A DNA stretch of 64,000 nt, taken from the NCBI RefSeq assembly GCF_028368975.1, contig NZ_JAQNDM010000002.1, positions 3,466,425 through 3,530,424 on the forward strand, in the 5' to 3' direction. The DNA is from Stigmatella ashevillena. GTDB lineage: Bacteria > Myxococcota > Myxococcia > Myxococcales > Myxococcaceae. Shown one piece after another: positions 23,742 to 27,358 of this stretch. The number at the start of each line of letters is the position of its first letter. The stretch's first letter is position 1. Under the pieces are notes generated by a model that saw nothing but the letters and a program-made list of their open reading frames with translations, had not been told where the DNA came from and did not search any database. A program made the translations under genes and the position numbers.

Positions 23742-24527
23742 TTAGGGGCACCAGCGAAGCAACGACCGCTCGATGGCCTCGCGCAAGGCCTCCGCCGCGG
23801 AATGAATGAAGAAGTGCTCCCCCGGGAAGACCTGGAACGAGAAATCCTTGGAAGTGAGATCCTTCCACCCCTCCATCACGTCGGGCATGGCGTGAGGGTC
23901 CGCATCCCCAGCGAAGGCGCTCAACGGAAGGGGGAGCGGAGACTCATCGATGACCTTGTAGGTATCGACGATCTCGAAGTCAGCGCGCAGCATGGGCGCC
24001 AACATCTCCATGAGATCCTTGTGGGCGAGCACCTGGGGCGGCGTGCCACCGTAGCGCTCGAGGGCCTCGATGAACTCCTTCTCTGGAAGCGCGTACAGCG
24101 GCCGGACCTTCCTGCGTCCCGGAGGAGTGCCCGCGGCCACCAGCAGCCCCACCGGCAGCGGGGCGCCCTCGCGCAGCAACCAGCGCGTCACCTCCACGGC
24201 GACGAGCGTGCCCATGCTGTACCCGAAGAAAGCAAACGGGCGATCCGCCAGGGAGCGCACCACGGGCCCCAGTGCCGCGGCCATCGTCCGGACATCCCGG
24301 AAGGGCGTCTCGCCGAAGCGCGTCTCACGCCCAGGGTACTGGGCAGCCAGCACCTCGACTCCAGGAATCTGCTCCGCCCAGCGCTGCATGGAGGAAGCAG
24401 TCCCTCCGGCAAAGGGGAAGCACACCAGACGCAGCCGCGCGTCCGCACGCGCCTTCACATAGGGAAACCAGGTCTTCACACCGGGGTTGGCGGCGTTTCC
24501 ACCTCCCGGAACGGCTTTGTTGCTCAT
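23742..24527 (-). CDS. Type II thioesterase (GrsT/RifR-like)
   Basis: A 261-residue alpha/beta hydrolase. CFPFAGGTASSMQRWAEQI at residues 36-54 and the nucleophile motif FFGYSMGTLVA (Ser near 103) identify the external thioesterase family; Asp in GDADPH and His in FPGEHFFI complete the triad. These enzymes remove mis-primed acyl groups from carrier domains of polyketide and non-ribosomal peptide synthetases. No synthetase, carrier protein or phosphopantetheinyl transferase lies in the window, so it is an orphan here and may serve clusters elsewhere in the genome. Confidence 0.88.
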   Translation of the reverse strand: MSNKAVPGGGNAANPGVKTWFPYVKARADARLRLVCFPFAGGTASSMQRWAEQIPGVEVLAAQYPGRETRFGETPFRDVRTMAAALGPVVRSLADRPFAFFGYSMGTLVAVEVTRWLLREGAPLPVGLLVAAGTPPGRRKVRPLYALPEKEFIEALERYGGTPPQVLAHKDLMEMLAPMLRADFEIVDTYKVIDESPLPLPLSAFAGDADPHAMPDVMEGWKDLTSKDFSFQVFPGEHFFIHSAAEALREAIERSLLRWCP

Positions 24528-24609
24528 GGAACCTCAAACAGCGTGAGTGCCCATCCCTTCGTACTTCAACCCGCGCGGTGCGTCACGGGGGCGCGAGGAG
24601 TGTCATGGC

Positions 24610-24867
24610 ATGAGAATTACAGGGGAAACCCCTGCCTTCACTCTCCGTCTGGGGGATGGGATTGATTCACGGCTTGACCCAGTGCATCATGCGGCCCATT
24701 CGATTGACCCCACGATGACGAACGCCCTGCCCCACTTCGAGCAGACCCCGTCCCTGGCGATGAGCCAGGGCGAGCGTTCTTCCTCCGTGCAGGCCCTCGT
24801 CCTCGTAGTAGGCGTCGCGCTCCTTCTTGCGCTTCTTCTTGCGCATGGGGCCGGGCCACCGTTCTGA
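24610..24867 (+). CDS. Putative Leu/Val-rich leader peptide of the ilv operon
   Basis: An open frame ending in VQALVLVVGVALLLALLLA then HGAGPPF and a TGA at 24865-24867. Within 18 codons around 24793-24846 there are eight Leu and four Val codons, using CTT (five times) and GTA (twice), which are uncommon in this GC-rich genome. The composition resembles the Val/Leu-rich IvbL leader of the enteric ilvBN operon. ATG 24610 has a GAGGAG ribosome site nine bases upstream and would give 85 residues; internal ATGs at 24715 and 24760 (35 residues) lack good sites but would give a more usual leader length, so the start is open. Confidence 0.6.
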   Translation: MRITGETPAFTLRLGDGIDSRLDPVHHAAHSIDPTMTNALPHFEQTPSLAMSQGERSSSVQALVLVVGVALLLALLLAHGAGPPF

Positions 24868-24900
24868 GTCGGGAGGAGTTGCTCCCAGGCCGAACGAATC

Positions 24901-24939
24901 AGCCCCGCCCCCGGAAACGGAGGCGGGGTTTTCGTTTTT
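24901..24939 (+). terminator. Intrinsic terminator (attenuator) before ilvB
   Basis: The stem 24903-24913 pairs with 24918-24928 over eleven positions with one C/A mismatch, closed by a GAAA tetraloop, and is followed by ttttcgttttt. This is the strongest terminator signature in the window, yet it lies between the leader reading frame and the ilvB start codon (24977) on the same strand, which makes sense only if read-through is regulated. Confidence 0.85.
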
Positions 24940-24976
24940 CGGCTCCCACAAACCCGTGATTCGCAGTGGAGATGCA

Positions 24977-26803
24977 ATGACGAGACATGGTGCAAGTCCC
25001 AAGACAGAGCAACTGAGCCCGGGAAGCGGCGCTCCCTCCGGCGGTTCCGCGCCGGAGCGCGTGACGGGCGCAGCGAAGAGCACGGGGGCGGAGATTGTCT
25101 GGGATGTCCTCGCCAGCGAGGGAGTCGACGTCGTCTTTGGCTATCCGGGTGGGGCCATCATGCCCATCTACGACGCCATGCATCAGCGGTCGATCCGCCA
25201 CGTCCTCGTGCGCCACGAGCAGGGGGCGGCCCACATGGCAGACGGCTATGCGCGCGCTTCGGGAAAAGTCGGGGTGTGCCTGGCCACCTCGGGGCCGGGC
25301 GCCACCAACCTGGTCACGGGCATCGCCACCGCGATGCTGGACTCCTCGCCCATCGTCTGCATCACCGGCCAGGTCTCCTCCTCGCTGCTGGGCAGCGATG
25401 CCTTCCAGGAAGTCGACATCACCGGCGTCACCCTGCCCATCACCAAGCACAACTACCTGGTGACGCGTGCCGAGGACATCGCCCCCACCCTCCGGGAGGC
25501 CTTCTTCATCGCCCGCTCGGGCCGCCCGGGGCCGGTCCTCGTGGACATCACCAAGGACGCGCAGCAGGCCACCACCGATGCGGCCCTGCCTCCCCGCCCC
25601 GTGCAGCGCTCCGGCTACCGTCCCGATCCCAGCCCGTCCGAAGAGTCCCTGGATCGCGCCGCCGAGCTCATCGCCTCCGCCCAGCGGCCCCTCATCTTCT
25701 GTGGCCACGGCATCGTCAAAGCCGACGCCAGCGCGTTGCTGATGGAGCTGGTGGAGAAGACGGGCATCCCGGTGGCGAGCACCCTGCTGGGCCTGGGCGG
25801 GTTCCCGGCCCTCCATCCCCTCAGCCTCGGAATGATGGGCATGCACGGAGAGGCCTGGGTCAACAACTCCATCCAGGAGTCCGATCTGATCATCGCGCTC
25901 GGGATGCGCTTTGACGACCGGGTGACGGGCAACCTGAAGACGTTCGCGCGCAGGGCGAAGAAGATCCATGCCGAGATTGATCCGTCAGAGATCAACAAGA
26001 ACGTCACCGTGGACGTGGCCCTGACGGGAGACCTGCACAAGACGCTCACCCGGCTGCTGCCCCGCATCCAGCGGCGCACCACCACCCCGTGGGTCGAGCA
26101 CATCAACTCCCTCAAGGGAACGGCCTCGGTGCGCGACATTCAGTACATGCCGCACGACGGCCGGCTCCACGCCGCGCACGTCATCCACGACCTGTGGTGG
26201 TTGACCCAGGGCAAGGCAACGATGGTCACCGACGTGGGGCAGCACCAGATGTGGGAGGCGCAGTACTACCGCCACGAGCGCCCACGGCAGCTCATCACCT
26301 CGGGGGGACTGGGCACCATGGGCTTCGCGCTGCCGGCCGCGATCGGCGCCCGGTTCGCCAAACCCGAGGAGGAGATCTGGCTGGTGGTGGGGGATGGGGG
26401 CTTCCAGATGACGGCCTCCGAGCTGTCGACCTGTGCCCAGGAGGGCATCAAGCTCAACGTGGCCATCATCAACAATGGCTACCTCGGCTTGGTGAGGCAG
26501 TTGCAGCAGTTGTTCTACGACAACCGCTACAGCGCCACCCCCCTGCACAACCCCGACTTCGTGAAGCTCGCCGAGGCCCACGGGCTGATGGGCCTGCGCG
26601 TCACCCGGCGCGAGGAGATCCCCGACGCGGTGGCCCGGGCCCGGAGCAGCCCCGGCACCACCGTCATCGACTTCCGCGTGGAACAGGAGGACGTCGTCTA
26701 CCCCATGGTTCCCGCGGGCGCGGACCTCGACGACATGATCCGGCGCCCCGAGCCCGGCAACGAGGCGCAAGCCACGCAGCAGTGGACCAGCGGAGCCGTC
26801 TGA
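24977..26803 (+). CDS. ilvB: Acetolactate synthase large (catalytic) subunit
   Basis: A 608-residue thiamine diphosphate enzyme joining two pyruvates to acetolactate, or pyruvate and 2-oxobutyrate, the first common step of Val, Leu and Ile synthesis. The N-terminal domain has GYPGGAIMPIYDAM and the cofactor-activating Glu in RHEQGAAHMADGYAR; the C-terminal domain has the TPP-Mg motif GDGGFQM...NNGYLGLVRQ. Residues 1-35 are a Ser/Gly-rich extension. ATG 24977 follows a tggag ribosome site and is preceded by the attenuator. First structural gene of ilvBNEC. Confidence 0.96.
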   Translation: MTRHGASPKTEQLSPGSGAPSGGSAPERVTGAAKSTGAEIVWDVLASEGVDVVFGYPGGAIMPIYDAMHQRSIRHVLVRHEQGAAHMADGYARASGKVGVCLATSGPGATNLVTGIATAMLDSSPIVCITGQVSSSLLGSDAFQEVDITGVTLPITKHNYLVTRAEDIAPTLREAFFIARSGRPGPVLVDITKDAQQATTDAALPPRPVQRSGYRPDPSPSEESLDRAAELIASAQRPLIFCGHGIVKADASALLMELVEKTGIPVASTLLGLGGFPALHPLSLGMMGMHGEAWVNNSIQESDLIIALGMRFDDRVTGNLKTFARRAKKIHAEIDPSEINKNVTVDVALTGDLHKTLTRLLPRIQRRTTTPWVEHINSLKGTASVRDIQYMPHDGRLHAAHVIHDLWWLTQGKATMVTDVGQHQMWEAQYYRHERPRQLITSGGLGTMGFALPAAIGARFAKPEEEIWLVVGDGGFQMTASELSTCAQEGIKLNVAIINNGYLGLVRQLQQLFYDNRYSATPLHNPDFVKLAEAHGLMGLRVTRREEIPDAVARARSSPGTTVIDFRVEQEDVVYPMVPAGADLDDMIRRPEPGNEAQATQQWTSGAV

Positions 26804-26815
26804 GGACACGCCACC

Positions 26816-27358
26816 ATGACGACACCCCCTCCTCCCCGTACCTTCATCGTCCACGTCGAAGACCGCCCCGGCGTCCTCAGCCGTGTCATCTCGCTCTTCC
26901 GGCGCCGGGCCTACAACATCGACTCGCTCACGGTGGCCAACACCGAGAACGCCGCCATCTCCCGCATCACCCTGGTGATGGCGGCGGATGAGCGCGAAAC
27001 CCGGCTGCTCGAGGCCAACCTCTACAAGCTCATCGAGGTGCTCTACGTGGAGCACGCCACCCCTCAGGGCCAGGTGAGCCGGGAGCTGGCATTGATCAAG
27101 GTGCGCGCCAGCGAAGAGACGCGCCCCGCGGTGTTGCAGGTGTGCGAGGTGTTCCGAGCCCGCGCCATCGATGTGACACCCACCTCGATGGTGATGGAGC
27201 TCACCGGCACCCCCGACAAGATCGACAGCCTCATCGAGATGTTGCGCCCTCACGGCATCATCGAACTGGCGCGCACCGGCACGGTCGCCATGGCGAGGGG
27301 CCCTCAGTCCCCGCTCACGGCCCTGCAAGAAACACCTCCCCCTGGAAAGGCCGCTTGA
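26816..27358 (+). CDS. ilvN: Acetolactate synthase small (regulatory) subunit
   Basis: A 180-residue protein with an N-terminal ACT domain (FIVHVEDRPGVLSRVISLF, residues 9-27) and a second ACT-like C-terminal domain, the full-length IlvN/IlvH layout that binds valine and adjusts the catalytic subunit. NIDSLTVANTENAAISRITL is a family hallmark. It lies 12 bases downstream of ilvB. Confidence 0.95.
   Translation: MTTPPPPRTFIVHVEDRPGVLSRVISLFRRRAYNIDSLTVANTENAAISRITLVMAADERETRLLEANLYKLIEVLYVEHATPQGQVSRELALIKVRASEETRPAVLQVCEVFRARAIDVTPTSMVMELTGTPDKIDSLIEMLRPHGIIELARTGTVAMARGPQSPLTALQETPPPGKAA

What the first reader, a model, noticed from the sequence alone, without database searches (positions are those of the whole stretch)
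24610..24976. Leader-peptide transcription attenuator in front of ilvBNEC
Seen: an open frame ending in a run of eight Leu and four Val codons (with uncommon CTT and GTA codons), a TGA at 24865, a small hairpin, and a near-perfect 11-bp terminator with GAAA loop and T-tract that ends about 40 bases before the ilvB start. Known: ribosome-mediated attenuation by Val/Leu-rich leader peptides controls ilvBN in enteric bacteria (IvbL). Inference: the same logic operates here in a distant lineage. The antiterminator pairing was not resolved, and the leader start (24610, 24715 or 24760) is open.
Basis: partly seen in the sequence, partly recalled or inferred. Interest (0 to 1): 0.72.

Follow-up and report, generated by a model that had tools for sequence, protein, structure and literature searches.

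The report
Leucine/valine leader attenuator, duplicated in myxobacteria
In front of this myxobacterium's branched-chain amino acid genes lies a tiny leucine/valine-rich gene followed by a transcription stop signal, very probably a switch that turns the pathway on when these amino acids run short; the kind of switch is classical, but it seems undescribed in myxobacteria, and its copies suggest how it is retuned when the pathway is split or lost.

Summary
A leader ORF (24715-24867; conserved start ATG 24715) carries a Leu/Val run rich in rare CTT and GTA codons, followed by a terminator (24903-24939) 37 bases before ilvB of a verified ilvBNEC operon. I resolved the missing antiterminator: the ORF's last codons (GGGGCCGGG, 24847-24855) pair with the terminator's 5' arm, and an equivalent pairing is predicted in all 24 other leaders tested. 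The last Leu/Val/Ile codon starts 8-9 nt before that word in 20 of 23 leaders. In a simple footprint model, a ribosome stalled in the run leaves the antiterminator free, while one beyond the run covers it. A 76%-identical second copy precedes leuACD in the same genome. Two congeners that keep ilvBNEC but lack leuA and leuC have leaders poorer in Leu and richer in Val. Leaders of this design recur in Myxococcota before ilvB, leuA and ilvC. I found no Rfam match and no description in the open literature searched. I file it as a new member of a known kind, ribosome-mediated transcription attenuators. Termination and stalling themselves are inferred; no experiment was available.

The parts
24662..24690 (+). 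Probable promoter TTGATT-N17-CATCAT, 24 nt before the leader ATG
   Evidence: Best -35/-10 pair; an element in a similar position precedes the leader ATG in most relatives; 8 of 12 consensus matches only, below the cut-off
24715..24867 (+). Leader peptide ORF, 50 codons plus TGA: MTNALPHFEQTPSLAMSQGERSSSVQALVLVVGVALLLALLLAHGAGPPF
   Evidence: Start and stop conserved, all family ORF lengths multiples of three
24796..24840 (+). Sensor run of 8 Leu and 4 Val codons with rare CTT and GTA
   Evidence: Codon counts; spacing to region 2 conserved
24847..24855 (+). Region 2 (antiterminator 5' arm), GGGGCCGGG, inside the last codons of the ORF; pairs with 24904-24912 (8 pairs, one C.C mismatch)
   Evidence: Folding of RNA before region 4 is made, pair counts, shuffles
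24860..24864 (+). CGTTC, 5' side of the inner antiterminator helix, pairs with GAACG 24892-24896
24868..24890 (+). Small hairpin directly after the stop codon, tip of the antiterminator
   Evidence: Small post-stop hairpin predicted in most relatives, with different sequence
24892..24896 (+). GAACG, 3' side of the inner antiterminator helix
24903..24913 (+). Region 3: terminator 5' arm, shared by antiterminator and terminator
24918..24928 (+). Region 4: terminator 3' arm (GAAA loop at 24914-24917)
24929..24939 (+). T-tract TTTTCGTTTTT
24977..26803 (+). ilvB, acetolactate synthase large subunit (controlled gene)
   Evidence: TIGR00118, E 4e-221
26816..27358 (+). ilvN, acetolactate synthase small subunit
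   Evidence: NF008864, TIGR00119
27408..28328 (+). ilvE, branched-chain aminotransferase
   Evidence: NF005146, TIGR01122
28396..29421 (+). ilvC, ketol-acid reductoisomerase
   Evidence: NF004017, TIGR00465

Best explanation
It is a ribosome-mediated transcription attenuator for branched-chain amino acid synthesis. Transcription starts just upstream of ATG 24715 and a ribosome translates the leader behind RNA polymerase. With enough charged Leu- and Val-tRNA the ribosome runs to the TGA and covers region 2; region 3 then pairs with region 4, the terminator forms and transcription stops before ilvB. When Leu- or Val-tRNA is short, the ribosome stalls in the 24796-24840 run and leaves region 2 free; region 2 (with CGTTC/GAACG and the small hairpin) captures region 3 before region 4 is made, and ilvBNEC is transcribed. 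A duplicated copy controls leuACD elsewhere in the genome. Shown by sequence and comparison: the parts, their conservation, the mutually exclusive pairings, the spacing, the duplication, the codon differences. Inferred: actual termination, ribosome stalling and the direction of the response.
For: Leader in all 12 of 96 family genomes that have this ilvB. Second copy before leuACD in three genomes of the genus. Antiterminator predicted in 25 of 25 leaders folded; pairs formed in 88.9% of cells and covariation score 0.124 versus 0.063 in shuffles, 0/500 as high. Rare sensor codons. Last sensor codon 8-9 nt before region 2 in 20 of 23 leaders. Footprint model: full exposure of region 2 for a stall up to codon 41, none from codon 44. 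The two genomes without leuA and leuC have fewer Leu and more Val codons.
Against: No transcript or starvation data. No protein-type constraint on the peptide. Five of nine pairs of helix 1 never vary and G+C is high, so covariation support is moderate; ORF-tail complementarity is not significant in G122, G190 (ilv) and L091. No specific 1:2 protector helix. The proposed promoter is weak by consensus and there is no clear Shine-Dalgarno sequence.
Confidence: 0.88

Rival explanations
1. A constitutive or leaky terminator with a fortuitous hydrophobic ORF; ilvB expression is set by its promoter only.
For: Strong terminator; G+C-rich DNA keeps one other frame open as well; the same terminator shape follows tRNA genes in related genera.
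Against: Conserved competing pairing, sensor spacing, rare codons, duplication with leuACD and codon differences that follow gene content.
Confidence: 0.05
2. A functional small membrane protein encoded upstream of ilvB.
For: Hydrophobic Leu/Val-rich C-terminal half.
Against: The peptide sequence is not conserved: nonsynonymous codon differences outnumber synonymous ones; the tail keeps the RNA word but changes frame (GCGPP versus PGAA) in relatives.
Confidence: 0.03
3. A metabolite- or ppGpp-binding riboswitch, or a protein-controlled terminator, with the ORF incidental.
For: Some ilvB genes are under ppGpp riboswitches (PMC10272879).
Against: No Rfam match at the gathering score; only sub-threshold, chance-level hits at relaxed thresholds here and in nine related loci. 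The pairing begins inside the ORF at a fixed distance from the sensor codons.
Confidence: 0.03

Closest known systems
ivbL-ilvBN attenuator of Escherichia coli and relatives (from general knowledge)
   Same: Val/Leu-rich leader peptide, competing antiterminator and intrinsic terminator in front of ilvB
   Different: No recognisable sequence relation; here the antiterminator 5' arm lies inside the ORF's last codons and the run is Leu-dominated in this genome
Leader peptides of leu and ilvGMEDA operons in enteric bacteria (from general knowledge)
   Same: Leader codons match the amino acids made by the operon
   Different: Here the ilv and leu leaders are recognisable duplicates with the same terminator
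ilvB leaders of Actinobacteria, including the Corynebacterium ilvB-II motif (PMC1262725, PMC10272879)
   Same: Short ORF with runs of Ile/Val/Leu codons and a terminator before ilvB
   Different: Corynebacterium uORFs encode usually 15-17 residues against 45-54 in this family; no Rfam relation found
ilvB-OMG motif, reported from various phyla (PMC10272879)
   Same: ilvB-associated motif with a BCAA-rich uORF
   Different: No Rfam family matched this locus above its gathering score; I did not verify that Rfam 15 holds this motif

Membership tests
Ribosome-mediated transcription attenuator (leader-peptide type) | Short translated leader ORF with codons for the amino acid made by the operon | tested here: met
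   Conserved ORF with Leu/Val(/Ile) run before ilvBNEC and leuACD; translation itself not shown
Ribosome-mediated transcription attenuator (leader-peptide type) | Intrinsic terminator between leader ORF and first gene | tested here: met
   24903-24939, conserved in relatives
Ribosome-mediated transcription attenuator (leader-peptide type) | Mutually exclusive antiterminator whose formation depends on ribosome position | tested here: met
   Predicted in 25 of 25 leaders; footprint model. Computational only
Ribosome-mediated transcription attenuator (leader-peptide type) | Protector (1:2) hairpin that favours termination without translation | tested here: inconclusive
   Upstream pairing of region 2 not above shuffled codons; a local hairpin within region 2 appears in the consensus fold
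Ribosome-mediated transcription attenuator (leader-peptide type) | Read-through rises when the cognate charged tRNA is scarce | not testable with these tools
   Needs RNA or reporter experiments
Known Rfam leader or ilvB motif | Covariance-model match at the gathering score | tested here: not met
   None in the window at gathering score; none reached it in relaxed scans of the region and nine related loci

The most novel reading that the evidence does not exclude
One homologous attenuator module serves the branched-chain pathway across much of Myxococcota (before ilvB, leuA and ilvC). When ilv and leu genes were separated in this genus the attenuator was duplicated, and its sensor codons were retuned to the genes it still controls: Leu in leu leaders, Val/Ile in the ilv leaders of some species and of species without leuACD. 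The RNA word stays fixed while its reading frame and peptide change.
Probability: 0.55. Interest if true: 0.55.

Novelty: new member of a known kind. Interest (0 to 1): 0.43.

Why it matters
It extends leader-peptide attenuation of branched-chain synthesis to Myxococcota, where this pathway is often missing (12 of 96 family genomes keep this ilvB; BCAA auxotrophy is reported as frequent in myxobacteria, PMC12919014). Duplicated leaders on separated operons, and leaders in species without leu genes, give a natural test of whether sensor codons follow pathway content.

Tried and rejected
Rfam: nothing at gathering score. T-box or tRNA idea: no tRNA in the window and no T-box match in the Rfam scans. 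Leader starts 24610 and 24760: not the conserved one. Protein-type constraint on the peptide: not found. 1:2 protector helix: not above shuffled codons. Covariance-model hits of about 35-43 bits in genera g2, g4 and g6: the seven inspected lie directly after tRNA-like sequences and are ordinary terminators, not attenuators. The ilvB of Sorangium cellulosum and of family f5 (about 47-50% identity): the scan reported no comparable leader. Literature: no open paper found on branched-chain attenuation in myxobacteria (PMC2965389 and PMC4833913 do not mention them); subscription papers such as Vitreschak 2004 and Lopatovskaya 2010 could not be read.

Full report
Observation. The sequence at 24547-24977 is as described. 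The open frame ends in ALVLVVGVALLLALLLAHGAGPPF with TGA at 24865-24867. The terminator stem is 24903-24928 with a GAAA loop and one C.A mismatch, followed by TTTTCGTTTTT to 24939; ilvB starts at 24977. The genes are ilvB, ilvN, ilvE and ilvC. In the leader CTT makes 5 of 10 Leu codons; in seven neighbouring window genes it makes 5 of 248 (Fisher p 6e-6), and GTA 2 of 166 Val codons. The region folds better than 200 shuffles (z -2.57). A strict scan found no sigma-70-like site in 24400-25100, so there is no sign of a promoter between terminator and ilvB.

A second copy in the same genome. A search of the own genome found a 76%-identical stretch on the other contig, G000:C1:863937-864182. It lies directly in front of leuA-leuC-leuD. 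Its peptide is MTNPASTLELTPRLATSRGVRPLVQVRGSVVARVAELLLGALLLLAHGAGPPF, and the terminator stem-loop with its T-tract is identical. Gaps inside the ORF alignment are 3 or 6 bases; a 4-base gap lies after the stop. The same pair of leaders, ilv and leu, exists in G074 and G190.

Conservation in the family. 12 of 96 genomes have this type of ilvB, and all 12 have the leader. In G092 and G116 the order is ilvB-ilvN-ilvE-leuA-leuC-leuD with ilvC downstream, and in G126 and G121 leuA lies at the same distance from ilvB. In the window's genus the leu genes are detached with their own leader copy (G000, G074, G190) or not found (G070, G122). Leader ORF lengths are 135-162 nt, all multiples of three, while the stop-to-terminator distance is 31, 35, 36, 38 or 39. 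ATG 24715 (MTN/MTT) is the common start. A promoter-like element ends 13-24 nt before the ATG in the family and mostly 6-13 nt before it in distant relatives, where the leader mRNA would be nearly leaderless. No clear Shine-Dalgarno sequence precedes the ATG.

Wider distribution. Leaders of the same design occur before ilvB in G083, G112 and G103, before ilvB-type genes in family f7 of the same order (G014, G019, G027, G036, G045), and in named MAGs labelled Sorangium sp., Myxococcales, Myxococcota, Polyangiaceae, Deltaproteobacteria or Proteobacteria (L059, L062, L064, L068, L091, L093; L066 and L069 with a different tail). In G146 and G140 a leader with a similar tail precedes a gene whose product reads as ilvC by its sequence. 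The word GGGTGCGG is read as GCG(PP) in one set and as PGAA(A) in the other, a frame change that spares the RNA.

Antiterminator. RNA reaching from region 2 to the end of region 3, as it exists before region 4 is transcribed, folds so that the ORF tail pairs with the terminator's 5' arm in all 25 leaders for which a terminator was located (G027 was cut short in that script). On a 17-sequence alignment the named pairs form in 88.9% of cells; the covariation score is 0.124 against 0.063 in shuffles (0/500 as high) and at most 0.061 when slid. The clearest changes are G-C to U-A at columns 7:73 in six sequences and C-G to U-A at 21:54 in two. Five of nine pairs of helix 1 never vary. Shuffling each ORF tail gives p below 0.05 for complementarity to the arm in 16 of 19 leaders; G122 (0.14), G190 ilv (0.22) and L091 (0.07) are the exceptions.

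Geometry. I placed the ribosome's front edge 12 nt beyond the first base of the A-site codon (an assumption from general knowledge). In the window leader a stall at any codon tested from 31 to 41 leaves 8 pairs between region 2 and region 3; codon 42, the last CTT, leaves 5, codon 43 leaves 3, and from codon 44 none. In 20 of 23 leaders the last Leu/Val/Ile codon starts 8 or 9 nt before region 2.

Sensor codons and gene content. In the 12 codons before region 2, leu leaders carry 5-8 Leu and 0-3 Val; the ilv-leu operons 4-6 Leu and 2-4 Val; the ilv leaders of G000 and G074 5-6 Leu and 0-1 Val; the G190 ilv leader 1 Leu, 4 Val, 1 Ile; G070 and G122, which show no LeuA at 1e-80 and no LeuC at 1e-60 in genomes 99-100% complete, 2-3 Leu and 3-5 Val. 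Few lineages are involved, so this is suggestive and not a statistical proof, and G000 and G074 have not shifted.

What is not shown. There are no transcript data. The peptide is not conserved as a protein: nonsynonymous differences exceed synonymous ones and the three codon positions vary about equally. That fits a disposable leader but means that frame conservation rests on start, stop, indel phase and sensor spacing. No specific 1:2 hairpin was found; the consensus fold instead shows a local hairpin inside region 2, which could favour termination when the leader is untranslated.

Comparison with the known. It works like the classical attenuators of enteric ilv and leu operons (general knowledge) and the ilvB leaders of Actinobacteria (PMC1262725; PMC10272879). 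It matches no Rfam family at gathering score, and searches of the open literature found no description in myxobacteria. I file it as a new member of a known kind. The genus is probably Stigmatella: the contig length of G074, 10,260,756, recalls S. aurantiaca DW4/3-1 (from memory, not verified).

Noticed in passing
Family f1 genomes: Only 12 of 96 genomes keep this ilvB and 13 of 96 a leuA at the thresholds used, in line with widespread branched-chain auxotrophy in the group.
   Followed up: partly
G083, G112, G103, G014, G019, G027, L068: The leader ATG lies only 6-9 nt after the proposed -10 element, so these leader mRNAs may be leaderless.
   Followed up: no
L200, L204, L205, L208, L213, L217, L219: GAAA-type-loop G+C-rich terminators directly follow tRNA-like sequences and score up to about 43 bits with the attenuator model; a specificity warning for model hits.
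   Followed up: partly
L059, L062, L068, L091: The terminator carries a conserved internal mismatch that the antiterminator pairing does not have, as if the terminator were kept weaker to let the antiterminator compete.
   Followed up: no
L066, L069: Variant in which the antiterminator arm (GCGGGGACCAGA) lies just after the leader stop codon instead of inside the ORF.
   Followed up: no
L223:1501-1587 and L224:1501-1586: Leaders with a similar tail stand before ilvC-like genes in two genomes of another family (f12) of the phylum.
   Followed up: partly
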